A stretch of 64,000 nucleotides of DNA, taken from the NCBI GenBank assembly GCA_020747065.1, contig JAGMVK010000006.1:2790001-2854000 (forward strand). The letters run 5' to 3'. Below are positions 1 to 25,475 of this stretch, piece after piece. Every line of letters begins with the position of its first letter. The stretch's first letter is position 1. Source of the DNA: Cadophora sp. MPI-SDFR-AT-0126 (lineage: Eukaryota; Ascomycota; Leotiomycetes; Helotiales; Ploettnerulaceae). The notes beneath the pieces were generated by a model. The model was not told the origin of the DNA. It ran no database searches and saw only the letters and a program-made list of their open reading frames with translations. Made by a program: the position numbers and the translations under genes.

Positions 1-968
1 GTCTCCGAAGAGTTTGTGATCCATGAACCCGTCATCTCTGAGGAGCCAGGAGTAGACTACGAAACCGATCATGAGCACGATGCTAACCAGGAAGGGCCCC
101 AAGACATGAGGATCGGTCCATGAGTATGAAGTTACGGACCATTGGAGGCCAATTGAGAACAAGGCTAGACCGCCGCCAATGAGAATCAGGCCGAGAAAGT
201 CGAGTTTCCGCAGCTTCTGAAGCGTCGTGAGTGACAGCTGGAGGTCTCGCGGAGGTGGCCGATAGCCGACCGCGACACCCAAGCAGCCGATAAAGTACAG
301 GGTTGCTGCAACGTACCAGTAGATCCGATAATTCTCTAGTTCGTTGTTGCGAAGGAGTGCGCCTCCCATGAGAATTGATATGACCCCGCCGATACCCATC
401 GACATGGAAATAGCGGATTGTGCTAGGCCTCGGTGCTGCCGAGGAATGATCTCAGAAGCGATTGCGAAGGTGGTTGCTTGTGAGGCCAGGGCTGGTCCGG
501 ACAGAATAAAACCAGCCATGAGAGTACCCATGTTCTGGGCTCGAGAAATGACCAATGGGCCCACAGCACCCATGGAGGATAGGATGATCATGAGCCATTT
601 CCGTCCGAAGTAGTCGCAAGCTTGACCCACCACGGGCATCAGCAAGCGACTCTATCAAGATAATCGAGCTGAACCATACCGACTTGCTTGGATCGCCGAA
701 GAGAGTGGCCATGGCCCGGGCCAAGAGTCCTGATCCGATGATAATGACGAGCTGAGAGAGGGCCAGGAAACAGATAGACTATGCATAAGGTCAGTTTGTG
801 CCGGATTTCCACTATATCGATGAAGATGCCACTCACCGCCACTGCTATGTATGTCGTAGTGTGTATCTTGACATTCTCCTCAAAGTCTGACAACCTGTCG
901 AGGCTCTCCACCATTTCCTCTGTGGCACACTCCTCCGTCTTGTTATCCGAAGCAGGCATTGTAGACAT
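1..968 (-). pseudogene. MFS transporter (TRI12/siderophore-type), frameshifted, cut by window edge
   Basis: Polytopic major facilitator superfamily transporter, expected in the plasma membrane as a drug or metabolite exporter. Exon 1 runs 968-837 (start MSTMPASDNK) and a 58-bp GT-AG intron covers 836-779. Exon 2 continues to the window edge, so the C-terminus is missing. The sequence has the TRI12-like block GDPSKSVWF, then QACDYFGRKW (the DxxGRK loop of MFS proteins), then LPRKH-like IIPRQHRGLAQ and PPPRDLQ. Around 645-655 the frame must shift by one base between IILIES and LMPVVGQ; no GT donor is present that could turn this into an intron. Upstream and downstream of that point the frame is open. 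It is divergent from the dioxygenase gene at 1475 and shares its promoter region. I read it as a recent pseudogene or a sequencing error in the cluster's transporter. The family call is firm; the substrate is unknown. Confidence 0.75.
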
Positions 969-1474
969 TCGAGAAATACGTTTCGTGTGAGGTAAGACGA
1001 TAGATAGTCTATTGTCGTACTTGACAAAGGGAGTGAAGATCAATACCAGAATCTGGAAGGTAGAGTTGAGATGATCTGGGGGATCCAGACCCACTAATTA
1101 TACTACTACATGCACGCGCTTCACCTGGACCCAAACCCACCCAGAATCCGGGGAAGACATGGGGTAGGGCGCGGGCGTAGGTACCTTTCGTACCTTGGGC
1201 GCGGGGCACTTTAGTTTCCGGGGTAATGAGATTGGGTGGGGTTGGGTGGGGTATCCTTGTGGAGGTGAGGCCCGGATAAGCAGCCCACAAGATCTTGTAG
1301 AGCCTCGGAGCGTCCTAGGGAGCTTGCACACCAGATGACCCGGACGCCTCCATCTTTTAGCAAATCTATGTATGTGCGAGGTTCAAAGGGACCAAAGGAT
1401 ATCCTTTTGATTTAAAACTACGACTAGCACTTGGCAACCGAAGCGTAACACTATCTAAAATTTCCCTGTCAATT
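969..1474. promoter_or_regulatory. Shared divergent promoter region with G-quadruplex motif
   Basis: This 506-bp gap separates the divergent transporter and dioxygenase genes, so it must hold both promoters. The + strand at 1234-1251 reads GGGTGGGGTTGGGTGGGG, which fits the G3+N1-7 quadruplex pattern with very short loops. No coding sequence is seen here. Regulatory function is an inference from position. Confidence 0.4.
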
Positions 1475-3082
1475 ATGACTTCAGTATTGGACGCCTCCAA
1501 GTCTCTTGACTGGGCTGAAGACTAGCAAGAGCCTCAGTATGGGCTCACGTCGCCGTGGTCGCATTACTACGCTCCTGCCGACACAGCTCCTCATGGCCGC
1601 TTCCAAGGAGAGTTGGACGACGTTGTTGTCTACGGAGAGATACCCAAGGAGATCAACGGCACGTTCTACCGTATGACCATTGACCCTGCCGTTCCGCCTC
1701 ATCCCAAAAATCCGTTTCTTGAAGGCGACGGGAACCTTACCGTGTTCCAGTTCCAGGATGGGCGTGTTCATATGAAGATTAAATATGTCGAAACCGAGCG
1801 CTACCTACTGGAACGAAAGGCAGGCAAGCGGCTCTTCGGTACCTACCGCAACCCATTTACCAACCATCCGTGCGTACGCATGGCGGACGACTCCACAGGT
1901 AATACAAACATCGTCTACTGGGGTGGAAAGCTACTAGCACTGAGTGAACGTAGCCTCCCCTACGAGATGGATCCCGATACTTTGGAAACTCGAGGCTTCG
2001 ACCCTTTCAGTGGCCAAGTCAAAGCAAAGACCTTTAGCGCCCATCCTAAAGTCGACCCCTTCAACAACGAGCTTGTAACGTTTGGCTACGAGGTAAAGGG
2101 CCTTGGGACCCCCGATATCTGCTATTATTCTATTGATCCATCGGGAAAGATCAAGGATGAGGCATGGTTCAAGGAAGATCAGAACGGTATGCCACATGAT
2201 GCATGGCTTACTGAGAATTGGCTCATCTTGTCATCCATGACCTTCAAAGTGAATTCCGATGAGGATATGAAGGCTGGCGCACACCATTGGGAGTTTGTCC
2301 CAGACCGTCCATCGGTCTTCTGGCTAGCTCCACGTAAGGCAAGCACGCCTCGTGCGGCGGACTGGAAGGTCGGCGAAGTGCGAAAGTACACCTGGAACAA
2401 CGGTGTCATCATTCACTGTGGCGCAGCTTGGGAAGAGGAGGATGGCACTCTTCGACTCGAAAGCCATTTCGTGTCGTTCAATGTCTTCTTTGACTTTAAT
2501 CCTCCGGGCATGGGGCCACCCGAGATTCCCACAGGAGACTGGGTCCGTTGGACCATGGATCCAAAGCTGCCATCGGGTGCTCGACTTGCGGACCCTGAGA
2601 TTCTGATGCCTTACGTTTGCGACTTCCCGAAAACCGACGAGCGTTTCCTAACCCGCAAGCAAAAAATCGTTTTCTTGATTTCCTGTGACGCAGGCAAAAA
2701 GGCCACGCCCGGCATGTTTCGCTTCAACTCCATCGTCAAGCTCAATACAGAGACGAAAGACATGATGGTCTTCGCCCCTGCTCCAGACGCTCGTGTGGCA
2801 GAGCCAGTCTTTGTCAATCGATCCAAGGATGCTCCTGAGGGCGATGGGTGGATTATCTGCTGGACAGATAGGCCTAGCAGACCTCGAGGGGAGCTGGTCG
2901 TCTTGGACACAAACGACTTTTCGAAACCTGTTGCTGTGGTTCAGTTGCCATTCTCATCACGCATCCAAGTCCACGGCAACTGGGTCGACAATCCGAATCC
3001 CGGCCAACCATTACCTCGATTGACGCGGCCGGTCAAGGATATACAACCAAGTATTCATGGTGCTTTGGATCGAATTGACTAA
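1475..3082 (+). pseudogene. Carotenoid oxygenase / stilbene-cleaving-type dioxygenase with in-frame TAG
   Basis: Fe(II)-dependent RPE65/carotenoid-oxygenase family enzyme; members cleave C=C bonds of carotenoids or of stilbenes such as resveratrol and lignostilbene. The four iron-binding histidine contexts are all present: SAHPK, MPHDAW, VIIHCG and QVHGNW. It is a clear paralogue of the intact gene at 18923-20653 (shared PHGRF, EIPKEI.GTFYR, ETERYLLER, AGKRLFG, DAPEGDGW). The ATG at 1475 is in frame with the body, but codon 17 is TAG (1523-1525). The frame then stays open to the TAA at 3080, and homology to the paralogue's N-terminal part begins just after the TAG (QYGLTSPW). Three readings are possible: a disabled gene, read-through, or a very short 42-nt intron (1484-1525, GT...TAG) that would restore an open frame. 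The next in-frame ATG (1673) would remove conserved sequence. The body is about 520 residues, close to the paralogue. Confidence 0.8.
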
Positions 3083-4144: not shown

Positions 4145-5171
4145 ATGGAGCGAAAAGAGTACGTCTTCAAGCAAGTTGCCGCTGGAGAGGGCATCGACGC
4201 GACGGTATGGTATAAAGCAGAAACTTCAACCACAGCGAAGCCCATTGGTAGGCAATTGGTACGCAATTGTGCACTAGCTCGCAGCTGACTTTGGGTAGTG
4301 TTCTATGTTCATGGGGGGAATTTCATCGTCGGACACAAGGACTTGCTTTCACCGGACTATGCAGAAACGCTGCTCAACCTGGGTTTCGGCGCGGTTGTCT
4401 CTCCAAATTATCGTCTCAGCCCAACTATCTCAGCATACGATGGTGCGGTGACGGATACTAGGGACGCTTACAATTGGACAATAAACAAGCTGCCAGCCCA
4501 ATTTGCTCAGGATACGGGTGTGAAACTGGATCCCCAGAGAATCGTGGCTTTCGGGCATTCAGCAGGAGGGACTCTAGCCTTATTAACGGTCAGTAACCAC
4601 CTGGTGAACTACATAACTTGACACTAATATCCCATGATAGGCCTCGAGCCCTGAGCCTCCTAAGGCCATCTTGGATATCTTTGGAATGAAGTACTTGACA
4701 GATGAATTTTACTACACCCCGAATCCAGCCCTCGCGAAGATTCCAGATTTTGATCAAGATTTTCTGGACAAGATATTTGCGGAAAATCCTCCACCAAACG
4801 GTGCGCCGCCTCCATTTGGTCCGAAGGGACCTGACTTCAGCAAATGTCGAGCAGCCTGGTTGTTTGACAGCATGAAGCGCGGCACTTTCTTGAAGGGGGT
4901 CATACCTGACGGCAAGTATGATAGAGTGGATCCTGCGACCATATTCTCGTCCTCGTTTCCTCCTACGTACTTCATCCATGGCGCTGCAGACACAGGTGTT
5001 CCCGCTCGGTTCTCAGAGAAAGCTCACGCGGAGCTCAAGGAGAAAGGGGTTGAGACGGAACTAGTGATAGTAGATGGGGCCGCTCACAACTTTGATGCTG
5101 GCGCGAAGCCAGGCGATGAGAAATTTGCTATCCTGGAGAAAGGTTTCAAGTTCTTGAAAGCTCACGTCTAG
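4145..5171 (+). CDS. Alpha/beta hydrolase (HGG / GHSAG type)
   Basis: Esterase-like alpha/beta hydrolase, 307 aa, probably cytosolic because no signal peptide is seen. Exons are 4145-4247, 4299-4588 and 4641-5171, with two GT-AG introns of 51 and 52 bp that restore one frame. The oxyanion-hole motif YVHGGNF lies near residue 39. The nucleophile elbow GHSAG puts the serine near residue 122. An acid candidate sits in HGAADTGVP and the catalytic histidine in AAHNFDAG. The fold-3/HSL-like arrangement fits enzymes acting on small esters or lactones. The frame is intact, unlike its neighbours on both sides. In this cluster it could hydrolyse an ester or lactone made by the oxygenases; this is an inference. 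Confidence 0.85.
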
Positions 5172-5589
5172 CTTGCGTGGAAGTAAACTCATTTCTATAG
5201 AAGTGGCATGTGTCTAAATTGCTAAGGCTTCGGAATTTGACGCAAATTTTGGAAACATTCTTTACGTTTTGCTTCTCTCTCTAGAGAACCAACACCCTGC
5301 ATCCTGTGTTTACTTCTAGACCACGGTATTCTGCAGTATAATACGTGATCTGTTGCACACATGCAACGCTGGACCCGCGCGTAGAATGGGTTTCATTACA
5401 GTTCTCGACTCACTGTCCGATATTTTCTTCTGTCTTGTTTACACACAAGCAGAAAGATAAGATATTGAACACTGCAGCAGTGCAACTGGCGTCATGTGTA
5501 TAATAATGACAGGGCCACTACGTACGGTAATACCACTCTCGTCATTTACAATTAAAGGCCATTCTTCCCATTTGTGGCATCTCTTCTAT
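5172..5589. other. Short intergenic region
   Basis: This stretch lies between two convergent genes. Nothing beyond presumed 3' untranslated sequence is seen. Confidence 0.4.
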
Positions 5590-6545
5590 TCAGCAACGCG
5601 TACCCATAGTCTCCACCGTTGGGGTTGCGTAAATCGTATGAATGTGAAACCGAGCTGGTTCCGTGCTGTTGAGAAAGACTCCTGAGTGATGGTCGAATTC
5701 GACAATAATAATAGGACTCTGTATCTTGTCATAGAACGGGTCGACATTGGTGAACGCGCCAATCCAGCAGAACTGAGTGTCCTTAATGTGTCGTTCAATC
5801 TGAGCGAGCCTGTTCTTCCGTGCCTGTGCGGGCAAGTAGACGACGAACTGCTCGACGATCTGGAAGAGTAGTTGAACGAGGCTTGTTTCGAGCCCGCCCA
5901 CAGGAAGTCCTTCGTACGGCACGATACGATTATCCTGACAAGCCCCGCAAAGATGCCGCTGGTCTGCGGGTTCCATCGATCCTCTGGAACTTCTGGCGGT
6001 TGCGTCGTCTTGAATATTTGCGCCTTGGATTGAAGCTCCTTCGAAAGTGACTGCATGAATCGCAAGCCTAGATCCTGCTCGGATTGGAGGATTTGAGTTC
6101 CTTGTTGGGTCCCCCGGTCGATCACATTAGGTTCTGCACCGATGAAGGTTGGAGCGACGACGATCTGTGTCTTCCAAATGCACGCTAAGACAGAGATGAT
6201 GCCCGTAAAGTAGCCACCCAAATGGCTCGGTCGTTGAAGGGCTTCCAAAGATGAGGAAATTATAGGATCGCATATTGAGCACCCCAGGGGCATTCTCACC
6301 AGTTCCCCAAGGAACTCGTTTGTCTTCATGGCAGACAATGCTTTTTGGCACCCTTCTGGTGAAAAGGTAGTTTGGATAACCGAATGCACAGCAGTCCCCA
6401 CTACCTCATCTACATTTTCAAGCCTGATTCCATTATGAAATAGGTAGAGCTCGGGGTTCGCCCAAGCTCGCCTCTGTGGCGCATCGATGGGATGTATGAC
6501 AAGCTGTTTTTCGTCGTGACTTAGCAAGGCCAGAAACTGGTTCAT
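5590..6545 (-). pseudogene. DUF3500 protein gene, broken by three frame changes
   Basis: The DUF3500 family has no firmly established function. The start ATG is at 6545, followed by a normal N-terminal part (MNQFLALLSHDEK... FLGELVRMP). Near 6300 the homology moves to another frame (SYNFLIFGSPSTTEP, then LYGHHLC). Near 6180 it returns to the first frame (TQIVVAPTF, GAEPNVIDRG). At about 5968-5970 it moves to the third frame, giving DQRHLCGACQDNR and then the family's C-terminal signature FDHHSGVFLN and EPARFHIHT. The last shift is explained by loss of one C from a CCC run (W-N-P-A-D-Q). No GT...AG pair explains these changes as introns. It is a decayed gene; the family assignment rests on motifs recalled from DUF3500 proteins. 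Confidence 0.75.
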
Positions 6546-6717
6546 GGCATGGACAATCGATTGAACATCGACAGCGTCATCTTCTGGAGTATATAGACCT
6601 TAAATGGGTTTTCCTGTCTTGATTTAGTGCTGTATTATTAGATAATTGACTAGAGGCTTAACTTATCAACAACTTATTAGTCAATCAGTTAACGTCGATT
6701 ACTCAGGGGTTTTCAAG

Positions 6718-6769
6718 TAAGTTAGTAAGTTGAGTTTTTTGGCTGACTTACGATTGACTTACTAACTTA
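6718..6769. repeat. 13-bp perfect inverted repeat
   Basis: Arms TAAGTTAGTAAGT and ACTTACTAACTTA are exact reverse complements separated by 26 nt. The surroundings are AT-rich and carry related fragments such as AACTTATTAG. It may be the end of a small inverted-repeat transposon or a cruciform-forming element; which one is undecided. Confidence 0.5.
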
Positions 6770-7166
6770 TTGGCCACCTTGTTCGTCTCCTTCCTCCTTC
6801 TGTGGGTTTGAGCCTACCCGATCCCCAGAACTCGGTAGTTTCTAGATAGGCGGGGAAACACTCCTAATATCTCTGATGATGACGAGCATGTAATTCTCGT
6901 TCCAGTTAGATTGAAATGGTGTCGCGTTACACCATGCACGAGCGGACGTCAACTGAAGACCGGGCAACGCAATCAACCACGTGGATCTAAGGAAAGTAAA
7001 ACCAAAAAGGGGGCGTAGAGAGGAGATCCGGGCCCAATCCAAGACTGCCCACCTCTAGCTGAACGTTAAACATTTCTTTCCTGTGGGACAAGCGAGGTAG
7101 TACTTACATAATTCCCCGGATACCGTGGCTATTTCCGTGGGTAACAGGGGTTGCCTTTATTCCTTA

Positions 7167-7194
7167 GCTACTCGTGTACTGTAAACGAGCTAGC
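7167..7194. repeat. Palindromic element, second copy of the 3370 element
   Basis: GCTACTCGT and ACGAGCTAGC form arms with one unpaired C around GTACTGTAA. The copy at 3370-3401 shares CTCGT, GTAAACGA and CTAGC in the same order and orientation. It lies 216 bp before the ATG of the carboxymuconolactone-decarboxylase-like gene. It could be a regulator site or a repeat footprint. Confidence 0.4.
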
Positions 7195-7409
7195 GTGCAA
7201 CAGAAAGTCTTCTTCTCGGGCTTCATGGACACGACCTGAAAGCACCTGCAGAAACTTTGACCGATGAGAATAAGAAAATTGATGATAATTCAATTGACAT
7301 ATCATATGAATGACGTGGTCACATTGCCAAGAGTCAAAAAAACATACCAAAACATCAAGCTCCCGAATCTTTCAATCGTCCGCCTATCCATTCATCCAAT
7401 CCACACAAC

Positions 7410-8391
7410 ATGGGAGACTCTGATGATTTCAGCAAGAAATACACCCAGGCGAATGTAGCCAAAGACGCAGCGAAATATGATGAGGCTCTATTCGGACAGT
7501 GGCAAACACAGCTCCAGAAAGTCTTGCCGAATGCTACCTCCGGGCTAACCAGTGGCATCCTTGTAAGAAATAAATCCACCCCAAGAGTTTATATCCGGAA
7601 CTCACACTCTACTAGGTAGCGATGCTCTGTGCCCAAGGACGCGGCGATGCAGCCGGAGCGCTCTTCAGTGATTCTGTAGCATCTAACAAGGCTCACGTCT
7701 TGGAACTGTTCGCAGTCATTCGAGAGGCACTCACCTTATCCATGGGCTTTGTTGGATTACCAAATGTCATGCCAGCTATATTTGGTTCGGTTGCCGAGCT
7801 GAAGAAAGGAAATATCACTGATATACAAGTGAACCAGAGGTACGGAATATTCCCACTCTTGAGAAGAAGTGCGTGGAAAGACAAGTCCACTAACTTTGAT
7901 CCGCTGGTGGAGGCCTACCTTCAAAGATGCTAATTATGAGGAGACCGGACGCGAGGTCCATCAAAAAATATACCGGGGAGTGGGAAATCCTGAAGTTGCT
8001 GCTATGGTTGCTCAATACTTTCCAGACTTGTGTAAGCAATGAGCCAAATTCGACAGGTTCCAGAGGTATGTTGAACTGACTTGAAGAAACCATAGCCTAC
8101 CTGGCCACAAGCAGTGTCTTTGGGTATGCTATTGGGGGCTGTGAAATCTTGCCCTTTCGAGAACGAGAGCTCGTCGTAGTCAGTGCGATTATTGCTCTGG
8201 GAGCATCTCGACAGGCACGCAGTCATTGCAAGGCTGCAATTCAGCTTGGTAATGCACCAAAAGTCCTGGAGGTTCTGGATGAGATTGCTCAAAACGTAGC
8301 AAGATGGAATGGAAGGGCCCTTCCAGACCGGTTAAACGTGCCACAGCTTGTGGTCGAGCTGAATGCCGAGTTGGCGAAGCTCAATGCATGA
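7410..8391 (+). CDS. Carboxymuconolactone decarboxylase (AhpD-like) family protein
   Basis: A 263-aa protein of the CMD/AhpD-like fold, a family that includes 4-carboxymuconolactone decarboxylases of the protocatechuate branch and disulfide reductases. Exons are 7410-7562, 7616-7839, 7913-8031 and 8096-8391; the introns are 53, 73 and 64 bp and carry branch-like CTAAC or CTGAC. The C-terminal half has the family core RERELVVVSAIIALGA, then QARSHCKAAIQLG, and an amphipathic helix LEVLDEIAQNVARWNG. The middle part (DFAxx-like HVLELFAVIREALTLSMGFVGLPN) is a second helical repeat, as in fungal members of this size. The frame is intact. In this context it may act late in ring-cleavage metabolism, but fungal CMD-like proteins have other roles, so the reaction is an inference. 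Confidence 0.75.
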
Positions 8392-10833: not shown

Positions 10834-11772
10834 CTACAGACCTGCGAGCAAAGCCTGGCGGTGTTCCAAGAGCCACTCCCGCACTGTCTTAGGTTTCCTG
10901 TCAATAGTCCTCTCGACAAAGTTGTTCAAAGCCCAACATACTTCGTTTGCTTGCTCAAATTTGAAGAAGTTCCACATCGTCGTTGCTGTGTTCTCACCCA
11001 GGAAAGGCCCATAAAAGCGGAAGAAAGATTCTTTACTGCCGTCATATGGAATTGGCCGTCCCAAAACATCGCTAACAATTTCAGCAACCTCCCTGAATTC
11101 GAGCCAGTCTGTTCCATTGTTCATGGTGTGAAATTGGCCGATGTGCTTTGCGTTATCCGAGAGGAGGAGCTTCCCGGCCACCTCTGCAATGTCTCTCGGG
11201 TCGATGAATGGCACGCGGTGTTCAGGCCAAATGAATTTCTTCTCCAATTGTACAGACTTTATCTGCAAGAACATGTTGTCGACGAAGGTAGCACCGCTGT
11301 TAATATAGGTCACCGGCAGTCCGCTCTCATCGAGGATTGCCTTGGCAATAGGATGTTGGACCGGTAGACTTCTTCCTCCTTTAAGGGTATCTGGGACTCG
11401 GTGCGGGTTGAATTCAGGAAACACGCCCACGAGCCGCACGATGTGAATCACGGTGCCCCACTTCTTAAACGCCGTGACTAGATTCTCCATAGGCTCCCGT
11501 TCAGCTGTGCCGGAAGGCGTGACCACGAATGCCCCATCTATGCCCTCGACAGCCTTTGTCAGGGTTGGAAGATCGTAGAAGTCGGCGACAACAATTTCAG
11601 CCGACGCGAAGGCTTTCTGGAGGCTTTCTTTCTTCTCCGGGGCACTTGTTGCAAGCCGGAGCTTAATGTCAGGACGCTTGCGGGATAGAAATTCTGCAAG
11701 AGGCTTGCCAATGTGACCGCTGGCTCCGAAGATCAGGATGCTCTTCAGGGTAGGCTTCAAAAAATCCGACAT
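10834..11772 (-). CDS. NmrA-like NAD(P)-binding protein
   Basis: A 312-aa atypical short-chain dehydrogenase of the NmrA/HSCARG type. The start is the ATG at 11772 (MSDFLKPTLK); the open frame extends further up only through a TTG codon. The Rossmann signature ILIFGASGHIGKPLAEFL lies at about residues 13-30. It is followed by the acidic strand IVVADFYD, the conserved GAFVVTPSG, and the substrate-side part AILDESGLPVTYINSG, then VPFIDPRDIAEVAGKLL and the C-terminal EIVSDVLGRPIPY. It is a single exon of usual family length. NmrA-like proteins either sense the NADP redox state as regulators or act as reductases. In the cluster either role is possible. Confidence 0.8.
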   Translation of the reverse strand: MSDFLKPTLKSILIFGASGHIGKPLAEFLSRKRPDIKLRLATSAPEKKESLQKAFASAEIVVADFYDLPTLTKAVEGIDGAFVVTPSGTAEREPMENLVTAFKKWGTVIHIVRLVGVFPEFNPHRVPDTLKGGRSLPVQHPIAKAILDESGLPVTYINSGATFVDNMFLQIKSVQLEKKFIWPEHRVPFIDPRDIAEVAGKLLLSDNAKHIGQFHTMNNGTDWLEFREVAEIVSDVLGRPIPYDGSKESFFRFYGPFLGENTATTMWNFFKFEQANEVCWALNNFVERTIDRKPKTVREWLLEHRQALLAGL

Positions 11773-13076: not shown

Positions 13077-15206
13077 ATGGTTTCCGATCTCAACAACGGT
13101 ACTAATGGCAGCATAGCTGCAAATGCTGAGCCATATGTCACTGACGTTTGTATCATTGGAACTGGTCCTGCGGGCGGGGCTTTGGCCAGTTTCCTTGGGC
13201 ATTATGGTATTGATGACTGTCTATATTCAATTGTACGAACGGTAGAAGTCTGACGAGGTGATTGCTCTACTTAGGCGTGCGGGGTATCATGGTCGGCAAA
13301 ACGAACTCGACGGCAACGAGTCCCCGAGCACATATTACAAACATGGCAACCTTAGGTAACAGCCATCCCAAAATTGCTTGTCCGAAGCCGATTTCACTGA
13401 CTGGGAGAAAGAGTGTCTTCGAGATATAGGACTAGAAGAGGAAGCTCGCAAAACTGGTCTCGACAAGTCGTTCATGAGGTATTCCCATTGGTGTGAAAAT
13501 ATGGCTGGCAAAGAAATTGCCCGCGCCCCTTCATGGGGCAATGGAACGATTGCAGAGGTGCGTATGCTTTCAAAAGTTCATTGGATCAAATGCCTTTGAA
13601 CAACGACAGTTAATCATGATAAGGTAGGCTGAGTACAAGGCAGCGAGCCCATGCGAGCCGCTTGATCTTGCACAGACGCTGCTGGAGCCAATACTGTACC
13701 GGAAGGCCGTAAATAGTGGATTCGTTTGCCGCTTTAACACTGCCTTCGTCTCTTTCAAGGAAGATCCCAACAAAGGTACTGTCGACGTGGTCGTGAAAGA
13801 CCTTGTTTTTGGAACAGAACATGTCATACGATGCAAATATCTCTGCGGTGCGGATGGAGCCAGAAGCAAAGTCATGGGACAACTAGGCCTTCCATTAAAA
13901 ATGGGAGAAGGTCAGGGTACCGGCGTGGTGAACTTGCTCCTCAAAGCTGACCTGTCTCGCCATATGAAGTACCGTGAGGGAAATCTACATTGGTGTTTCC
14001 AGGAAGATCACTTGAACGAAGGTCTTGTGTGGGTGGTACACCCTAGAATGGTAACCCCGTGGATGGAATGGGTGGTCGGCTTCTTTGTCGCCCCTGGGTC
14101 CCAGCCAAAGACTGAAACCCCGGCCACTCGGGAGGACTGGGAGAGAAGAGTCAGGAAGTTCATCGGGGACGATAGCATTCAGTTTGAAATCCTGGATATA
14201 TCTGACTGGCAATTGAGTAACACGATTGCTCAGCAGTATTCAAAAGGCAGAGTTCATTGTCTGGGAGACGCTGTTCATCGCCACACACCCGGCGGAGGAC
14301 TAGGGTCGAATACTTCAATTCAGGATGCATATAATCTAGCGTGGAAAATTGCACATGTTCTTAAAGGTAAGAAAATAGAAGCCTAGCAGAGATCAACGGT
14401 ACCTTTGGCTGATTGCTTCATATAGGCAAAGCAGGCACTGAGCTTCTGGAAACGTACTCTACCGAGAGACAGCCTGTGGGAGCACACGTTGCTTACAGGT
14501 ATGTCTTGCGGTTCTACAATGAGATCATACTAGCCACTGTCTCTAATCCGGAAACAGAGCGATGGAGGTTGTTAAGTACCATGCCAATATCTGGCGGGCG
14601 CTCGGCTTGAATACACCGGACCTTTCGGGGTTGCAAAACGGAGTCAGCAAACTGAGTATGGCGAGTGATGAAGGCCGCAAGGCACGAGCAGCCCTCCGTC
14701 ATGCGATTGAAGAGACTTGTTATGAATTGAGGGGAATAGGTATTGAACTCAACCAGCGGTACAAATCAGCCGCGGTCTATCTCGAGGACGAAGGGGAGCC
14801 TCCCGTGTTGGACGAGCCGCTGTTACGGTATTACAAGTCAACGTATCCTGGATCACGCTTGCCACATGCATGGCTCAATACCGCCGTTCCCGGTCCCCCC
14901 ATATCTACGGTCGACCTAGCTGGAAAAGGCCGCTTTGCAATTTTCACAGGCATCGGCGGGGACCAGTGGAAGATTGCCGCCAAGGAAGTCTCGAGGGAAT
15001 TGGACATTGAGATAACCTCCTATAGCATAGGGTATGGTCAAGACTACAAAGACCCTGGCTTTGAATGGGAAAAACATAGGGGGGTGGAGGAGTCGGGTTG
15101 CGTCCTCATCCGTCCCGATCGATTCGTGGGCTGGCGTTGCCAGCAAGTATCACAGGACTGTGTCTCGAAGCTCACGCAGGTGCTCAAGACTATTTTGGCG
15201 CTCTGA
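13077..15206 (+). CDS. FAD-dependent aromatic monooxygenase (phenol hydroxylase / TfdB-like)
   Basis: A 603-aa class A flavoprotein monooxygenase that would hydroxylate a phenolic ring using NAD(P)H and O2. Exons are 13077-13206, 13275-13355, 13412-13557, 13634-14366, 14426-14498 and 14558-15206, all joined in frame by GT-AG introns. The FAD dinucleotide motif IIGTGPAGG lies near residues 26-34. SPRAHITNM follows, as in the phenol-hydroxylase/2,4-dichlorophenol hydroxylase branch. The DG motif is CGADGARSK and the GD motif is CLGDAVHRHTPGGG followed by SNTSIQDAYNLAWK. The C-terminal part has GIELNQRY, SRLPHAWL and SGCVLIRPDRFVGWR, the usual thioredoxin-like tail of this group. The fifth intron (14499-14557) was chosen because it gives VAYRAMEVVKYH in frame. 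It is preceded by an AT-rich relic and followed by a gene-poor stretch. Confidence 0.85.
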
Positions 15207-16706: not shown

Positions 16707-17919
16707 TCATGGCTTCGAATTCAGTAGCCACTCGATGCCTTTCACCGTATCTTCTTCCCGCTTCTGGCTCTGCGCGGTTAGTTGTGGGAAGAATTCCCAG
16801 AAATGATGAGGAAGGCCAGGATAGAAATCAACCCGGGTAGAGATGTTGTTCTCCTCCCGAAGGACTGACTCGTAGATCAAGGCTTCATCTCTCAGTTGGT
16901 CAAGTCCACAAACCTGAAAGTAGGTAGGCGGTAGTCCAGCGTGTCCATTGGGATTATTGAAAGGAACGAAAAGGGAAGAATGGATATCAGGTTTGAGAGC
17001 ATCTAGTGTGCGCGTTAGTAGATTTTTCGAGGCTTCATTTACAGCGAAAATTCTGTTGTGAGGATTGTACTCACCCATACACAGAATCACCATCTCATAC
17101 GGCGGCGGCCCTAAACCTTCATTCGTCTTAAAGCTCAGATACCTGGCCCGGTACTTTTCAGGGACAACAGGAGGCGGTAGGATTGTTGGTACACTCAAAA
17201 ATTGACCAGTGATTTCGACTGGATTCCCCTCGTCACGATTGATATGTGCAATCACGCAAGCCAGATTACCACCAGCTGAGACTCCTCCAACAATAAAGCC
17301 TTCATTAGTGTCAACTTGGACCGCCGAGGCATTTTTAAATAGCTGGGCAGATGTATCAGCCAGAAATGAACTTATAGTAGAGGTCCATTTTGGCCGAGTC
17401 AGGAGGAACTTACCCATTTGGTTGCATCCCAAGCATCATTCACGCCAGTGGGGAACGGATGCTCCGGGGCAAGTCGGTATCCCACACTAACAACAACGAT
17501 ATTGAGTGAGGAGACGATCCGTCTATAGGTAGCACTCTCGTCTGTATGATGTCCCATGCAAAATCCGCCGCCATGGAAGGCTACAAGCATAGCATTCCCC
17601 TTTGTGGCTTCCCTATTTTGGGAGTAGACCCTCGCTTCAATTATAGTGCCATCACGGGCTGGAATCTGAATATCATATTCTTTGACAGTAGTGAAACCGC
17701 CTCGTTCCTTCTCCATAGTAGCTGGCCGAAGGCTGTCGACCATGGAGCGCCAAGCCTGTATATCTAATCCAGACGCCGGCGGCGGCACATGTTTTAAGAT
17801 CTGTGGCACTTAACATCTGTCTCCAGCATACTGAGCTTGTGGGAAATTACCTCTAAGTATTCACGATCTGCCTCATTCTCGATTGCCCCGTCATTGTTTA
17901 CTTTCATAGATGACACCAT
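16707..17919 (-). CDS. Alpha/beta hydrolase, hormone-sensitive-lipase type (fold-3)
   Basis: A 364-aa esterase/lactonase-like enzyme. Exons are 17919-17851, 17800-17411 and 17342-16707. The first intron (50 bp, GTAATT...CACAG) joins MVSSMKVNND...DREYLE to ILKHVPPPASG in frame; without it the large open frame has no ATG. The oxyanion motif AFHGGGFCMG lies at about residues 98-106. The nucleophile elbow GGVSAGGN puts the serine near residue 175. The acid is in GLDQLRDE (about 301) and the histidine in GLPHHFWEF (about 332), so the catalytic set is complete. It has no signal peptide. It differs from the hydrolase at 4145 in sequence type. It lies tail-side of the intact dioxygenase on the same strand, which suggests co-regulation, and it may cleave an ester or lactone intermediate. 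Confidence 0.85.
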
Positions 17920-18922: not shown

Positions 18923-20653
18923 CTATTCAATCTTTGTTAAGGGACCATATCTGGCTGTAGGCCTAATGCGCTTAATCGGCTTACCCAGGGGAGGAAGTGG
19001 CGTTCCCGGATGTGGGTTTGGTACCCAGTTGCCGTGTACCTGCAAGCGGGTCTGGAAAGGCAATTGGATGACGGCGATGGGATTCTTCATGTCTCTCGTA
19101 TCAAGAAGGGTCAACTCTCCCTTTGGGGATGAGGACCGAAAGGTGTAGACGAGGAGCCAACCATCCCCCTCAGGCGCATCGTCCGATCGACGGATCAAGA
19201 CTGGCTCTGCGAAGCCTCCGTTGGGCGGGGCAAAGAACTCGTCAGTTTGGCCCGTCTCAGTATCAAGCCGAACTATCTTCTCAAACCTAAAGGCATTGGG
19301 CGCCATGCAGGTCAAGTAAACGATTTTTGTGCGTTGTGTTACGAGACGGTCGTCGATGGCTGGGAAATCCGTTAAGCCCCGGTACAAGATCTCCGGATCG
19401 GCAACTTTGGTACCACTCGGCTTCGTAAGATCAAGTTTCCAGCGAACCCAATCCGAGGTGGGAACCTGGCCCTCCGCGAGTTTCGGCAGCTCTGAACCAT
19501 CTTCTACCGTGAAGAACGGAAAAGTATTGAATGTCGCCCAGGGACTCTCCAAGGTAAGTGTACCATCCTTTTCCTCCCAGCCACCGCCAGTGTGAATGAC
19601 CAGACCGGGCTCGTAGATGTATGTGCGGAATTCACCCTCCTTCCAGCCATGTAGCTGTGGACCGTTGGGACGACGTGGAGCGACGAGGAACTCGTGAGGC
19701 GCGTAAGGGGCATAGACCCAGTGGTCCGCATTCTCCTCTCTCATATTCTCGTCCTTATTCACCCTGAAGGGCATGTTGGATAAGATGATCCAGTTTTCCG
19801 TGACCCAAGCGTCATGCGGCGAGCCTGGTACATCCGTCTTAAACCAGAATTCGTTTGAGATCTTGCCGTCGGGACTCACTGAGTAAGTGCAATAATCAGG
19901 ACTATGTAGACCCTTGGCGGCCATCGAGTATGTTACAAGTTCATTGGTGAGACGGTCCTCTTTGGGATGAGCAGTAAAGGCCCTGGCTTTGGTTTGACCG
20001 CCATAGGGGTCGTAAGTCTTGGTCTCCAGCGTGTCAGGGTCAACGGAATAAGGCAGCCCTCTCTCTGCCATTGCGAGCAGCTCGCCACCCCAGTAGATGA
20101 TATTGGTGTTAGCTACATTGTCGTTTGCCATGCGAACGCATGGATGGCAGTCGTATGGGTTACGATAGCGACCGAACAGCCGCTTACCCGCCTGGCGCTC
20201 GAGGAGGTACCTCTCCGTCTCGATATACTTCATCTTCATCGAGACCTTGCCATTGATGATACGGAAAGCGCTGATCATCCCGTCACCATCAATAAAGGGA
20301 ACATCGTCTTTCGGTAGTACGTTAGGATCGGGATGAAGGCGGTAAAATGTGCCGTCAATCTCCTTTGGGATATCACCGAACACGACTAGGTCATCCGCCT
20401 CGCACTCAAAACGGCCATGTGGAGCTTGATCGATCGGGTTGTAGATCAACTCCCACGGAGATTTCAGGCCGTAGTGATTATCTGCAGACTTCTCCTGCTC
20501 GTGGCTGCCATCAACATCAGCCTTCTTGAGAACGGGAATGTCCGTTTGTGGAGTGACAGGAATGTAAGGCTTTACATTAACCCGCCCGCGCTCAACATTA
20601 CTCGGGGCTCCATCGAGGATAGCTGGCGCAACGATGTCTGCGGAGGGGTCCAT
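18923..20653 (-). CDS. Carotenoid oxygenase / stilbene-cleaving-type dioxygenase, intact paralogue
   Basis: A 576-aa single-exon protein starting with ATG at 20653 (MDPSADIVAPAI). It belongs to the Fe(II)-dependent RPE65/carotenoid oxygenase family, a seven-bladed propeller with four iron-binding histidines. These are seen at about H229 (TAHPKED), H280 (SPHDAWV), H354 (LVIHTGG) and H540 (QVHGNWV). It has no signal peptide. The first 60 residues are poorly ordered and specific to this copy. The remainder matches the damaged paralogue at 1475-3082 along its whole length. Fungal relatives cleave carotenoids, retinal precursors, resveratrol or lignin-derived stilbenes; the neighbours (phenol hydroxylase, CMD-like, CrtC-like) favour an aromatic stilbenoid over a carotenoid, but this is an inference. 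It is divergent from the secreted CrtC-like gene at 21521. Confidence 0.9.
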   Translation of the reverse strand: MDPSADIVAPAILDGAPSNVERGRVNVKPYIPVTPQTDIPVLKKADVDGSHEQEKSADNHYGLKSPWELIYNPIDQAPHGRFECEADDLVVFGDIPKEIDGTFYRLHPDPNVLPKDDVPFIDGDGMISAFRIINGKVSMKMKYIETERYLLERQAGKRLFGRYRNPYDCHPCVRMANDNVANTNIIYWGGELLAMAERGLPYSVDPDTLETKTYDPYGGQTKARAFTAHPKEDRLTNELVTYSMAAKGLHSPDYCTYSVSPDGKISNEFWFKTDVPGSPHDAWVTENWIILSNMPFRVNKDENMREENADHWVYAPYAPHEFLVAPRRPNGPQLHGWKEGEFRTYIYEPGLVIHTGGGWEEKDGTLTLESPWATFNTFPFFTVEDGSELPKLAEGQVPTSDWVRWKLDLTKPSGTKVADPEILYRGLTDFPAIDDRLVTQRTKIVYLTCMAPNAFRFEKIVRLDTETGQTDEFFAPPNGGFAEPVLIRRSDDAPEGDGWLLVYTFRSSSPKGELTLLDTRDMKNPIAVIQLPFQTRLQVHGNWVPNPHPGTPLPPLGKPIKRIRPTARYGPLTKIE

Positions 20654-21520
20654 AGTGTGTCATGGGGTGAACAATATGCTCAAGAAGATGAAGGCCGTTC
20701 GTTGTCCAGGTGCCTCGACCAGTAGACTAGAATAGGTGGAGAACAGCTTATATTCTGCACTCGGCTCAAGATGAATCTCCGGCTTTTAGAATATTGAGTT
20801 ACCGCGAACCAAACCACTGCACTACACGGAGTCTTCATCGTCGAAACCGACTTCTAGACATTCTACTCCACGGAATCTATCTTGGGGGGGCCATCTGGCA
20901 TCTGCGTATGGTAATGTCAAGCCGCCTTTACACCCCATTCCACGGAACCATCGCTTAACCTGGAAACCGCTAATAAATTGCCGCCGGACGACAAGGTTCA
21001 CGCATCCTCAAAGACCTTTAACAGCCTTTCGTAAGTAATCTTGGACTACCTGATTGGTGTCCTACAGAACGAGTCACAGTCCTTGTAAACCCTCCCTGGG
21101 CTGGATTCGTCGTGAGCACAGGTTCCACGGAGGTACCGAAAGCTACGAAACCTAATCTATAGCCGTTCATCGGCTGAAGCTAGGTTGTGGGATTTCTGTT
21201 CCCCCATTTCTCTGTAGCATGGGTTTGACATTTGGAAGGACTTCTTCAGGATCGGGATAGTAGTCTCGTAGTTCATTTAAATTTATGCCCCCGTGCACCT
21301 CCTAGAATCATCCCGTGGGTTTTGTGGTGAAGGTGCAAAATAATCTGGGGAACTAATCCGGGGAACCGGCCAATACCACCAATACCTCTGGACTGGACGG
21401 TTTTCTTCAAGATGATGATAAATAACCAGCCGAACGTCTGCTCCTCTTCCTTTAGGACACATAGCAGCAACCACTCTTAGTGGCCATTCTACAGCACCGC
21501 TAGAACAATCTTAAATCAAT
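20654..21520. promoter_or_regulatory. Divergent promoter region between dioxygenase and CrtC-like gene
   Basis: This 867-bp gap must hold the start regions of two outward-facing genes. No coding sequence is recognised and no binding site can be named with confidence. Confidence 0.4.
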
Positions 21521-22667
21521 ATGTGGCCATCGATATCAGAGGTAGTCCTCGCCTGCTATATCTCGTTTGCGGTCAGGGCGGAGAGATACGTCCCTGAAAA
21601 TGGGAGCCTGCTCGCTGATGTCGTACGTGCACCAACCACTCCTGCTCTGGAGATGCTGTTCCATCCAGCGGGAGGTCAAGCTAATATCGAGCCATATACA
21701 GAATACACTACCGCTCACCTATGATATAGCAGGATCTCAATCGGCGGCGGTCAATGCTCAAGGCTCATTCTGGTCATCCTCCTACATTCATGGATCCAAC
21801 AACCGTGACTACTTTGTCATTTCCCATGCTGCAATTGTGCCACTTCCGTTTGGGAATTCAGTATATCGTGCTTCTATGCTTGACATCACGAGTCCAGCTG
21901 CGTTGTACGAGAGCTTTGAAACGTTCTCCAATGTTTCGACTCTCTTCTCGGACAACGGAGACTTCAGCGCTCAATATCCCGACTACTTTTTTGGCGCTGC
22001 TAACCCCGGGTCCTCGGCCACAAATCTGCGAACGTGGAGCACGGTCCCAGACGTGAGGTTCGACTTGAACTTCGACTTTTCTTCACAGGTTCTCTTGAAC
22101 GGCGGACTGGGGACCTTTCCAGGCGCTTTCAACACAACAGTCAAAGAGTGGAGCGTGCCCGCTTGCAAAACTCGTGGCTGGCTGATTGCGAACGGTACCA
22201 ACGTCACCGTCAATGCTGACAAGTCCTTGACCTGGTACGATAGACAATGGGGTGGAGCGCCAGCGAATTGGACGTGGTTTCAACTGCACATCCATAGCCC
22301 ACAGCCTGGACAGCCCGATATCCCTTTCTCAATCTGGACATATGGCGACGCGACAACCGGCGTGCTCGGTTTTGCGACTGTGCGAGGACCAGTGGGAGCA
22401 ACTCAGGGTGTTATACCCGTGAAGTCTTTGAAACCCTCTTCACGAACATATATTTCACCATCGTCCAATGTTGTCTATCCGTTAGACTGGGTCTTGGAAC
22501 TGTCTGACGGGACGAATCTTGCAATATCGAGCGTGCGACCGAAGCAAGAACTCGTCGGAGCAAACGGGGCTTTCCCGGCGTACGAAGGTTATGTCGCCGT
22601 AAGTGGCGTCCTCGCAGGCAAGCAGAAGGCAGTTGGATATGGTATGGCGGAAATTGTGCCACCTTAA
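21521..22667 (+). CDS. Secreted CrtC/AttH-type protein, kievitone-hydratase-like
   Basis: A 355-aa predicted extracellular enzyme of the hydroxyneurosporene-synthase (CrtC)/AttH lipocalin-like superfamily. In fungi this superfamily includes kievitone hydratase, which detoxifies an isoflavonoid phytoalexin, and some cyclases. Exons are 21521-21622 and 21702-22667; the 79-bp intron has GTACGT, a GCTAAT branch and TACAG. The first 20 residues form a signal peptide (hydrophobic VVLACYISFAV, likely cut near VRA). Several N-glycosylation sequons follow (FNTTV, NGTNVT, NWTW). The superfamily signature appears as LTWYDRQWGG followed by NWTWFQLHI, with an FSIWTYGD strand and a C-terminal GYVAVSG. Joining the exons removes the early stop of the first frame. 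It would act outside the cell on a plant-derived or exported substrate. The exact reaction is unknown. Confidence 0.75.
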
Positions 22668-23565
22668 AGCAGTGCCCTGTTTTGACAGGTTCTGAATATA
22701 TTGACTGAACTAGTCTTTGTCGTGTGGACAGATCTCCATACATATACAATCCGTTCCTCGTCATGTGCAAGTGCACACCATCTATCACTTGCGTTGTTCT
22801 AGCCAATTCCTCACCCTTCTTCGCTGTCCCAGTGCCTGTCCGGTTTCCCCTACCTTCTCTGCCTTTCCGTCTCCGCTCCTTCGCTACTTTAGTCACTTGG
22901 TCCCGCTTTCCTTGAGATTCAGCCTCAGATGTCTGTTTGCGTGTCGACCTGGCCCGGAGGCTAATTGATGGTGAGAGAGCAGTGGCGTAGTCGATCCGTG
23001 TTCGTTTCTTCCGTGCTTCTAGCTAATTGAGTGATAGATGCAAAATCAGGAAGAATTAATGAACAGGAAACAGGGCAAACTCGAGCTTTATATAGTAAAA
23101 GCATATGCATAGGTTGTTGAGATGTCAACCGTGCACTCTCCAGAAGTAAATAGTCAGGCTCCCGCCCACCTAGACTGTAACCAATTCAAAATGCTCTATA
23201 CCTTTCAATATAGGTTACGTCCATACCGTAGAAGGCGGACGGAAGTTTACATGTGATTATAAAACACCAACCATTTCATAAAACCAATCCAATTAAAGAA
23301 GAGCGGAAATTAGCCTTCTCTGAAAAGAGACCCTAGTTCCCATAAAGGGCAGCTGGTACAAAACTAAAGCACCACCAGTATGGGGAATGCAAAGGCTAGT
23401 CAATGAACAGCAAAACATGCGGAAAATGCGCATCATTCAAGCAAAATACAAGGAACCGCACCTTCTATTGAATAAATACTATATCTTTGCAGAGGATAGC
23501 AAACGAGAATTCTTCTAACCGTATGCTGCAAGAATTACAGAGTATAACAACCCCGCGATGGATGT
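22668..23565. other. Intergenic region between convergent genes
   Basis: Only short open frames and AT-rich patches are seen. It is long for a convergent 3'-3' gap, but nothing in it is recognisable. Confidence 0.35.
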
Positions 23566-25475
23566 TTAAGGCGTTTTGAGGTACGGCTCAAATGGTACGC
23601 CAGCGATCGCAGCCTTGATCTGCAATGCCAAGTACCGACCATATAATCTTGCCATTGCAAGCTCACCCGTTGCATACCATATGGCAGGATCTGTAGGAAC
23701 ATTCGTCATTATAGTCCCAACGGCATGGATTCACAAGGCTGGAAAACTTACGCCTCTGTGGTGCGAAAAAGCCAGGCGTTTCGCCTTCCTCGTCCCTCCC
23801 AGGTAAGTCCTCCAGTAGGGCCCCAATTTTCGGCCCAACTATTTCCTCAACGCCAAGCCGTACATTGTTCTTGAAGCCCGTGCAGAAGACGATTACATCT
23901 GCGTCCAGAGCGCTGCCGTCAGTGAACATGAGGCCGGTTGATGTATAGCTTTCGATTTCACCACCCTTGATCTTGATCAAGCCTTCGACAATCATTTTAG
24001 AACACCCTACATCAAGATAATGTCCCCCGCCGCGCTCGCGGATCTCCTTCATAAGATTCGGGGCCCTTTTTGTCTTGAATCCCACACGTTCTAGTGCATC
24101 AAACTGCTCAGGATTCCTGGTCGAAAACGATCGAAACGCGAACCGCGGCAGAGCTTCGTAGAATGTCGACGGCAAACCCCATTCTGTTTGATCCGATTCA
24201 TGGTAGTTAGATTCTGAATTGTAGTTCTGGTTATGAGCGACTTTGAAGAAATCAAATGGCACTACAATAGTGGGGCTTCGCTGAACCATTGTCACCGATG
24301 GTAGTTCCTCTTCGACCATGTCTTCGGCAACATCATGTGCTAGAAAAACCATTAGACATATGGTAGTTTTGACTACGTTGCTGATATAACTCACCGGTAT
24401 TAGCTGTACCCACCACTACGGCTCTCAGACTCTTCCACTCCCTCGGAGACTTGTAGTCGACGGAATGGATGACAGTCCCCTTGAATGTCTCTCGATTCGG
24501 ATAGTTCGGCATGTATGGTTTTTGGTCGCTTCCTATCGCAAAGATTATATGGCGACCCTTGAGAGTAAAGTTGGTGCCATTTTGGTTTGCTTTGACCGTC
24601 CATATCTTTGCATGCTCATCCCAGCTTGCAGACTCTACTGCGGTCGAAAGTCGAACGTCAAGTCCGTACTCATTCACATACTCTGTGAATCCGCGAGCGA
24701 GGTCCGTTCTGGTAAGGAAGTACGGATATTCATCACTTCGGAATGTCTGTTCAAACGGCATAGTGGCATACCACTTCCCCGTATGTAACTTAGCAGAATC
24801 ATATCTGTTCAACCAATTACCGCCGATTTGTGCGTGCTTCTCTAGTGCAATGGCTTTCACTCCAAGTGCCTTGAGGCGACCGAGCGTGGAGAGACCATTT
24901 TGGCCCGCCCCGACGATAACGCAGTCCACCAGTTCTACCTCGGTGCCATTGGACCCTTGAGTGCTGTTGGACGCTTCACCATTTGGTAACGGTGCTTGCA
25001 CCTTCTCAAGCACGTCGGGATCACCTAATGTATCGGCCTTCTTCAGGAAGGTGGCCATGATCCAAATCTTCCACCCTACCTTACCATCCGGAATAACGAA
25101 AATCACCCCGGAGCACTCAGCCGGTAATGACCCTCTAGTCTCGAACGTGAACCGCGCACGAATAAATCCGATGGGGCCAAGCTGCATTGCTTTCGTGCTG
25201 CCTTTTTGAAGCCTGAAGTTAGTTGGCTGGCGGAGGCTGGAGAGTTCCTTCCAGGCCAACACAATGTGTTGGGGCTGGTGGAAAGTGCGAAAGCAATTAG
25301 TGAAGGCCAGAAGGTCGCGCCATGCGGCGTGTGCATAGACATCCTGCTCGCTCAGGGAATTGAGCTTCTCGATGCAAGACTGTACCGCTGCGTCGGCATC
25401 TAGGTTGTCTGGCAGTTGGCAATAGGGTAAGGTGTCAATTGGAGCCAGTGGCGGAGATTGGAGTTCGGTGGCCAT
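23566..25475 (-). CDS. Flavin-containing monooxygenase with N-terminal SnoaL-like part
   Basis: A 597-aa class B-type flavoprotein monooxygenase. Exons are 25475-24395, 24339-23752 and 23690-23566; the introns are 55 and 61 bp. The last junction gives QRHPAIWYATGELAMARLYGRY, a typical FMO C-terminus. Residues 1-170 have no nucleotide-binding motif and look like the SnoaL/NTF2-like domain often fused to fungal FMOs. The FAD motif VIVGAGQNG lies near residues 187-195. GGNWLNRYDSAKLHT follows, then the FMO fingerprint FKGTVIHSVDY (FxGxxxHxxxY, not the W form of Baeyer-Villiger enzymes). The second dinucleotide motif is VVVGTANTAHD, which lacks the middle glycine. It likely oxygenates a soft centre or a ketone using NADPH. 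It is the rightmost member of the cluster. Confidence 0.85.

What the first reader, a model, noticed from the sequence alone, without database searches (positions are those of the whole stretch)
1..25475. Putative aromatic or phytoalexin catabolic gene cluster built around two stilbene-cleaving-type dioxygenases
Within 25 kb lie two carotenoid-oxygenase-type dioxygenases, a phenol-hydroxylase-type FAD monooxygenase, an FMO, a CMD-like protein, two different alpha/beta hydrolases, an NmrA-like protein, a secreted CrtC/kievitone-hydratase-like protein, a DUF3500 gene and an MFS exporter. No PKS, NRPS or terpene synthase is seen, so degradation or detoxification of an imported aromatic (stilbenoid, flavonoid or lignan) fits better than biosynthesis. 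I do not know this gene combination as a described cluster.
Basis: partly seen in the sequence, partly recalled or inferred. Interest (0 to 1): 0.75.

Follow-up and report, generated by a model that had tools for sequence, protein, structure and literature searches.

The report
Decaying fungal aromatic-degradation gene cluster
A root-associated fungus carries a row of about eleven genes that look like a kit for breaking down a plant-type aromatic compound; the kit seems pieced together from smaller sets found elsewhere in the same genome, and part of it is already broken, so it is a new variant of a known kind of cluster rather than something without precedent.

Summary
A catabolic cluster is the best reading, with four corrections. 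(1) CCO1 has an in-frame TAG after codon 16, DUF3500 has one stop and four frame changes without introns, and the MFS gene an apparent frame change. Intact CCO1 and DUF3500 relatives in Leptodontidium sp. 2 PMI_412 are both listed on a 64,128-b contig. (2) The FAD enzyme resembles 2-hydroxybiphenyl 3-monooxygenase, not phenol hydroxylase. (3) Both CCOs belong to a clade (57 of 128 rows compared) lacking the lysine that binds the stilbene 4-hydroxyl, so 4-hydroxystilbene cleavage cannot be assumed. (4) The cluster looks modular: CMD-like+FAD+DUF3500 recurs on C33, CCO+ABH1+MFS on C19, FMO+ABH2 (weaker matches) on C2, C10 and C18. Outside the window 11 between-family pairs lie within 10 kb, against 0.9 under uniform placement. 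Stilbene-dioxygenase degradative clusters are in print, with other ring-cleavage genes. Substrate unknown.

The parts
1..968 (-). MFS transporter (MFS_1/TRI12); continues to about C35:2789116 outside the window (locus L009); apparent frame change at about 636-679 with no room for an intron
   Evidence: frame change inferred, not confirmed by alignment to a homologue (one search found no Pfam match in the upstream piece)
1475..3082 (+). CCO1, carotenoid-oxygenase/lignostilbene-dioxygenase family, Ser at the LSD lysine position; in-frame TAG at 1523-1525
4145..5171 (+). ABH1, alpha/beta hydrolase (BD-FAE / Abhydrolase_3), 3 exons, open model
5555..6614 (-). DUF3500 pseudogene: one in-frame stop, four frame changes, first about 62 residues not found
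7410..8391 (+). CMD-like protein (weak PF02627), 4 exons, third intron uncertain; one further relative found in the genome
9849..10334 (-). fragment with an OrsD domain; not thought part of the pathway
10834..11772 (-). NmrA-like NAD(P)-binding protein
13077..15206 (+). FAD aromatic-ring hydroxylase of HbpA/TfdB type, 6 exons, 605 aa, open model
16707..17907 (-). ABH2, Abhydrolase_3 esterase, 3 exons
18923..20653 (-). CCO2, carotenoid-oxygenase/lignostilbene-dioxygenase family, single exon, 576 aa, Ala196 at the LSD lysine position with Arg198
21521..22667 (+). CrtC/kievitone-hydratase-like protein with a signal-peptide-like start; exons 21521-21622 and 21702-22667
   Evidence: signal peptide judged by eye
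23566..25475 (-). flavin-containing monooxygenase with N-terminal extension, 3 exons, 597 aa

Best explanation
An accessory catabolic (degradative) gene cluster, about 26 kb (C35:2789.1-2815.5 kb), in a root-associated Cadophora. It looks like a composite of modules that also occur apart in the same genome: (A) CCO + ABH1 + MFS; (B) HbpA/TfdB-type ring hydroxylase + CMD-like + DUF3500; (C) FMO + ABH2-type esterase; plus a probably secreted CrtC-like hydratase and an NmrA-like reductase. Proposed working (inferred): the secreted hydratase and the hydrolases trim an imported plant-type aromatic; CCO2 splits a conjugated C=C next to an aromatic ring into two carbonyls; the FMO and ABH2 oxidise and hydrolyse side chains; the FAD enzyme ortho-hydroxylates a 2-substituted phenol to a catechol-type ring; DUF3500 and the CMD-like protein act at or after ring opening; the MFS exports substrate or by-products. 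Shown: gene content, module recurrence, family assignments, broken reading frames in CCO1 and DUF3500. Inferred: order of steps, substrate, and that the cluster is degenerating in this isolate, with ring opening left to paralogues such as the C33 copy.
For: Gene content. Module B: C33 has CMD-like, FAD and DUF3500 within 5 kb, and that CMD-like gene is the only relative found outside the window. Module A: C19 has an ABH1 relative (44%), an MFS gene and a CCO of the same Lys-less type within 7 kb. Module C: FMO with ABH2 relatives on C2, and by weaker matches on C10 and C18 (FMO 22% identity there). 11 between-family pairs within 10 kb outside the window against a mean of 0.91, 0 of 20,000 uniform placements. 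CCO1 (98.8%) and DUF3500 relatives of Leptodontidium sp. 2 PMI_412 are both listed on a contig of 64,128 b. A DUF3500 protein, AN10530, is proposed to act on 1,2,3,5-tetrahydroxybenzene in A. nidulans gallate catabolism (PMC12388069, passage). The C34 DUF3500 has a fumarylacetoacetate-hydrolase-family gene next to it. Left flank: pogo-type transposase and kilobases down to 21% GC; CCO1 and DUF3500 broken.
Against: No expression, metabolite or assay data. No aldehyde dehydrogenase, known ring-cleavage dioxygenase or transcription factor appeared in the 31 window sequences scanned, though CCO products are aldehydes. The whole cluster was not shown in any other fungus: best non-self CCO2 relative 63%, best FAD relative 60% (120 best listed each, about 8,000 candidates scored). 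The protein database is clustered at 90% identity, so a near-identical orthologue could be hidden; the isolate's own FAD protein was not listed either. The only solved DUF3500 relative is called a dehydratase, not a dioxygenase. At one of the four DUF3500 loci (C12) no aromatic-catabolic neighbour was confirmed. The uniform null ignores that accessory genes gather in certain regions, and several matches counted there are weak. The Arabidopsis host suggested by the strain name makes no stilbene phytoalexins (both recalled).
Confidence: 0.68

Rival explanations
1. One reading: a working stilbene-degradation cluster in which two LSD-type enzymes cleave 4-hydroxystilbenes such as resveratrol or lignostilbene.
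For: Best sequence matches of both CCOs, and the best fold matches of the CCO2 model, are lignostilbene dioxygenases and CAO1, ahead of carotenoid cleavers. All four iron-binding His are kept. The active-site Tyr is kept in CCO1, CCO2 and 124 of 128 rows. In LSD4 the Tyr and Lys bind the 4-hydroxyl (PMC8191317, passages).
Against: The Lys is Ser in CCO1 and Ala in CCO2. CCO1 is interrupted. The presumed host is not a stilbene producer (recalled).
Confidence: 0.2
2. No pathway: unrelated accessory genes gathered next to a repeat-rich stretch, partly decaying.
For: Transposase and AT-rich flank, OrsD fragment, broken genes, no regulator found in the scanned sequences, no whole-cluster conservation seen.
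Against: Pairs of the same families recur at six other places in the genome, C2, C4, C10, C18, C19 and C33, and CCO1 with DUF3500 in a relative.
Confidence: 0.15
3. A tailoring-only part of a biosynthetic pathway (for example with a backbone enzyme elsewhere); NmrA, FMO, CrtC-like and FAD enzymes also occur in such clusters.
For: CrtC-like proteins serve in biosynthesis too (recalled); the only solved DUF3500 relative comes from nucleoside-antibiotic biosynthesis; the third-ranked FAD relative type is the aklavinone hydroxylase RdmE (191 bits).
Against: No backbone enzyme among the scanned sequences; closest FAD structures are HbpA and TfdB, catabolic phenol hydroxylases (roles recalled); DUF3500 sits beside aromatic-catabolic gene types on C33 and C34.
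Confidence: 0.1
4. Carotenoid or apocarotenoid turnover.
For: Family PF03055; CrtC name.
Against: Carotenoid-cleaver structures rank well below LSDs: 129 against 303 bits for CCO2; no phytoene synthase, desaturase or rhodopsin among the scanned sequences.
Confidence: 0.05

Closest known systems
Gentisate catabolism (GC) cluster with sdoG of Aspergillus fumigatus and relatives (Greene et al. 2014, PMC3914699)
   Same: Stilbene alpha-beta-dioxygenase, a hydroxylase and an MFS gene together; spotty distribution; read as possible stilbenoid breakdown (abstract and passages)
   Different: GC clusters carry gentisate 1,2-dioxygenase, fumarylpyruvate hydrolase, C6 regulator and sometimes aldehyde dehydrogenase, with sdoG only variably present; none of those four was found in the window sequences scanned; this one has HbpA/TfdB-type FAD, CMD-like, DUF3500, FMO and CrtC
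Degradative gene clusters defined by 13 core genes including stilbene dioxygenase (SDO) and phenol 2-monooxygenase (PMO) (Gluck-Thaler and Slot 2018, as cited in PMC10735191)
   Same: Same kind: core genes for plant-metabolite degradation clustered in fungi (passages)
   Different: The 2018 paper is not held, so its cluster models could not be compared; the FAD gene here is closer to HbpA/TfdB than to phenol 2-monooxygenase
Resveratrol-cleaving CAO1 (N. crassa) and bacterial LSDs
   Same: Sequence family, four His, Tyr; fold for the CCO2 model
   Different: Phenol-binding Lys replaced by Ser or Ala with Arg two residues on
2-hydroxybiphenyl 3-monooxygenase HbpA / 2,4-dichlorophenol 6-monooxygenase TfdB
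   Same: Full-length similarity of the FAD enzyme
   Different: Fungal, substrate unknown
Kievitone hydratase of Fusarium (PMC5805349)
   Same: CrtC-type relatives; FsKHS has a 19-residue signal peptide (passage) and the start here looks like one
   Different: No alignment to KHS was made; substrate unknown
AN10530 of A. nidulans (DUF3500, proposed in gallate catabolism) and ApmL/Amc20 (9x86)
   Same: DUF3500 family; fold tested on the Leptodontidium relative P0243
   Different: The window copy is broken

Membership tests
Stilbene/lignostilbene-cleaving dioxygenase (LSD branch of CCO family) | PF03055 domain; closest solved structures are LSDs/CAO1 | tested here: met
   for both; fold for CCO2 only
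Stilbene/lignostilbene-cleaving dioxygenase (LSD branch of CCO family) | Four iron-binding His | tested here: met
   CCO1 and CCO2 keep all four; 128, 128, 126 and 126 of 128 rows, the rest gaps
Stilbene/lignostilbene-cleaving dioxygenase (LSD branch of CCO family) | Tyr and Lys that bind the 4-hydroxyl of the substrate (Tyr-101, Lys-134 of LSD4; passages) | tested here: not met
   Tyr kept; Lys is Ser (CCO1) or Ala (CCO2); 57 of 128 rows have A/S with R two on, 66 of 128 have K, 5 other
Stilbene/lignostilbene-cleaving dioxygenase (LSD branch of CCO family) | NCBIfam LSD equivalog cut-off | tested here: not met
   CCO2 309 bits, cut-off 800; CCO1 not scanned there
Stilbene/lignostilbene-cleaving dioxygenase (LSD branch of CCO family) | Cleaves a 4-hydroxystilbene | not testable with these tools
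   needs an enzyme assay
GC cluster with sdoG | gentisate dioxygenase, fumarylpyruvate hydrolase and C6 regulator next to sdoG | tested here: not met
   no such Pfam match among the 31 window sequences scanned; short exons could be missed
SDO/PMO degradative gene cluster | homologues of the published core queries clustered within 6 intervening genes | tested here: inconclusive
   CCO and FAD genes cluster, but the published queries were not available
HbpA/TfdB-type FAD hydroxylase | FAD_binding_3 plus Rng_hyd_C, full-length match to HbpA | tested here: met
Fungal phenol 2-monooxygenase | closest to 1pn0/1foh | tested here: not met
   67 and 62 bits against 444 for HbpA
DUF3500 | PF12006 over most of the model in one open frame | tested here: not met
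   matches PF12006 in two frames; one stop, four frame changes; it is a pseudogene of the family
Kievitone-hydratase/CrtC-type hydratase | CrtC/lipocalin relatives and the Asp and Trp residues of RgCrtC (D268, W283, W285; passages) | tested here: inconclusive
   Lipocalin_9 27.2 bits (cut-off 26.2), CrtC 18.9 (cut-off 22.5); 7a0q 158 bits; WYDRQWG and WTW seen by eye in the protein, no alignment to RgCrtC
CMD (carboxymuconolactone decarboxylase) | PF02627 above cut-off | tested here: not met
   20 bits, cut-off 23

The most novel reading that the evidence does not exclude
Fungi hold an uncharacterised subfamily of lignostilbene-dioxygenase-like enzymes in which the substrate-anchoring Lys is lost once and an Arg appears two residues on. 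These enzymes recognise a different alkene (for example O-methylated, prenylated or 2-hydroxylated styryl aromatics), and modules built around them (CCO+ABH1+MFS) combine with a polyhydroxybenzene module (HbpA-type hydroxylase + CMD-like + DUF3500) to make new catabolic clusters, this window being one such combination in decay.
Probability: 0.35. Interest if true: 0.65.

Novelty: new variant of a known kind. Interest (0 to 1): 0.45.

Why it matters
If the modular reading holds, one genome shows how fungal degradative clusters may be assembled from small recurring sets and lost again. The Lys-less CCO clade (57 of 128 rows compared; members are listed under names such as 'isoeugenol monooxygenase' and 'lignostilbene dioxygenase') is a defined target for testing substrate range. 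The DUF3500 link to an HbpA-type hydroxylase and a CMD-like protein gives a concrete lead for a family of unknown function whose role in gallate breakdown is only proposed.

Tried and rejected

In one search the loci outside the window were typed by hand from the tables, exon pieces of one gene merged (9 CCO, 8 FAD, 3 DUF3500, 1 CMD-like, 8 ABH1, 27 ABH2, 25 FMO); window loci were dropped; an ABH1 and an ABH2 hit on the same gene were not counted as a pair. Several hits are weak (down to E about 1e-3) and may be distant family members only. NmrA, CrtC and MFS were not part of that count.
Full report
WHERE. The window is C35:2790001-2854000 of a 54-Mb, 38-contig assembly. The protein of CCO2 is listed as P0121, 'lignostilbene dioxygenase [Cadophora sp. 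MPI-SDFR-AT-0126]', 99% identical over 89% of the query, on a contig of 2,982,448 b, the length of C35. The taxonomy is Leotiomycetes, Helotiales, Ploettnerulaceae. That the strain comes from Arabidopsis roots is recalled; the listing did not show the strain name.

GENE CONTENT. From left to right: MFS (-, runs out of the window), CCO1 (+), ABH1 (+), DUF3500 (-), CMD-like (+), OrsD fragment (-), NmrA-like (-), FAD ring hydroxylase (+), ABH2 (-), CCO2 (-), CrtC-like (+), FMO (-). On the left lies a DDE_1 transposase ORF (L009:6396-8198); of the ten kilobases C35:2779-2788, eight have 21-39% GC and two 44-47%. On the right, 25530-28000 shows no ORF over 127 aa, and then comes a GH5 cellulase. 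Ten further ORFs from the gaps gave no match above a Pfam cut-off. In all, 31 window sequences were scanned with Pfam (10, 6 of 10, 5 of 6, 10).

WHAT IS BROKEN. Against the intact Leptodontidium relative P0243, the DUF3500 sequence aligns in five pieces at 86-96% identity, in frames -3, -2, -3, -2 and -1 that overlap by at most 14 bases, so no intron fits; one in-frame stop lies in the first piece, and the first 62 residues were not found within 5401-7300. CCO1 reads MTSVLDASKSLDWAED, then TAG at 1523-1525, then 518 open codons; its relative P0147, 98.8% identical over those 518, reads through. A splice that avoids the stop cannot be excluded without RNA data. In the MFS gene the distance between two stretches that look conserved is 43 bases, one base off frame; this is an inference, since Pfam found nothing in the upstream piece. 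CCO2, FAD, ABH1, ABH2, CMD-like, CrtC and FMO give open models.

CCO ACTIVE SITE. In LSD4, Tyr-101 and Lys-134 bind the substrate's 4-hydroxyl and Phe-59 stacks on the ring (PMC8191317, abstract and passages); PbLSD docking names Lys135 (PMC6097328, passages). The PDB alignments printed show Lys there in 9g88, 6n1y and 5v2d. I aligned 128 sequences: CCO1, CCO2, six other CCOs of this genome (best ORF each, one of them only 336 aa) and the 120 listed relatives of CCO2, of which P0121 and P0227 are proteins of this same isolate. At that column 66 have K, 46 A, 11 S, 5 other. A or S always goes with R two residues on (57 of 57), K never (0 of 66). In a FastTree tree the 57 form one clade with support 1.0, and CCO1 and CCO2 sit in separate deep branches of it, so they are not a recent tandem pair. 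A third member in this genome is the C19 gene, seen as LLALAERGLPY and not in the tree. Iron ligands and Tyr are kept. By sequence both CCOs, and by fold the CCO2 model, are LSD-branch rather than carotenoid-branch. The NCBIfam LSD equivalog cut-off is not reached by CCO2 (309 bits, cut-off 800). My reading: they cleave a C=C, probably next to an aromatic ring, but whether it is a 4-hydroxystilbene is open.

MODULES. Searches of the same genome with the window's own proteins or families gave: CMD-like, only one other place, C33:1463737-1464509, with an FAD gene at 1465186-1467036 and an intact DUF3500 at 1467326-1468678 beside it. ABH1, best other place C19:92515-93402, with an MFS gene and a Lys-less CCO at 97242-99072. 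FMO with ABH2 relatives on C2 (a CCO starts 7.6 kb beyond the FMO), C10 (an FAD gene beyond) and C18; ABH2 with FAD on C4. The C10 and C18 FMO matches are weak (22% identity, E 3e-10 and 3e-5). Counting pairs of different families within 10 kb, window excluded: 11 observed, mean 0.91, 0 of 20,000 uniform placements reached 11; with CCO, FAD, DUF3500, CMD-like and ABH1 only, 4 observed, mean 0.12, 0 of 20,000. The null is uniform and ignores the clumping of accessory genes.

RELATIVES. CCO1 and DUF3500 relatives of Leptodontidium sp. 2 PMI_412 (P0147, P0243) are each listed on a contig of 64,128 b: most simply the same contig. Best other relatives are 63% for CCO2 (Bisporella) and 60% for FAD (Ilyonectria). 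Because the collection is clustered at 90% identity, only the 120 best are listed, and the isolate's own FAD protein was not among them, absence of CCO2 or FAD in Leptodontidium is suggested at most.

OTHER ENZYMES. FAD: HbpA 444 bits, TfdB 350, RdmE 191, phenol hydroxylase 67. CrtC-like: only 7a0q (158 bits) in the PDB at E up to 1; the start MWPSISEVVLACYISFAVRA looks like a signal peptide by eye; kievitone hydratase also has one (PMC5805349, passage). FMO: the stretch FKGTVIHSVDY fits the FMO rather than the Baeyer-Villiger fingerprint (motifs recalled).

COMPARISON WITH PRINT. Greene et al. 2014 describe gentisate clusters, part of them with a stilbene dioxygenase, sdoG, in three fungal classes, with loss and horizontal transfer (PMC3914699, abstract and passages). 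PMC10735191 (passages) lists SDO and PMO among the 13 core genes of degradative clusters after Gluck-Thaler and Slot 2018 (not held). [quoted passage not shown] So the kind is known; this gene set differs in its ring-handling part.

VERDICT. New variant of a known kind; catabolic reading likely, stilbene reading open, cluster partly decayed.

Noticed in passing
L009:6396-8198 (-) and C35:2779000-2789000: pogo/Tc-type DDE_1 transposase ORF and kilobases down to 21% GC border the cluster on the left, which could favour mutation of the nearest genes.
   Followed up: partly
window 9849-10334 (-): Fragment with an OrsD domain; no complete gene was recognised around it.
   Followed up: no
L032:5459-6849 and 7772-8248 (C34): Another DUF3500 gene next to a fumarylacetoacetate-hydrolase-family gene.
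   Followed up: partly
C2:1588.9-1601.8 kb, C10:18.2-25.5 kb, C18:707-716 kb: Recurrent neighbourhood of an FMO and an ABH2-type esterase, with a CCO (C2) or an FAD ring hydroxylase (C10) close by; C10 and C18 matches are weak.
   Followed up: partly
L038:223-1683 (-) (C19:90223-91683): Thiamine-diphosphate enzyme beside the C19 CCO+ABH1+MFS set; possible aldehyde lyase or decarboxylase step.
   Followed up: no
window 56001-60000: Abrupt change of GC skew from +0.26 to -0.29 between neighbouring 2-kb stretches.
   Followed up: no
P0243 model mb721fc9234a7: DUF3500 fold clearly matches only ApmL/Amc20, named a dehydratase, which sits uneasily with the proposed dioxygenase role of AN10530.
   Followed up: partly
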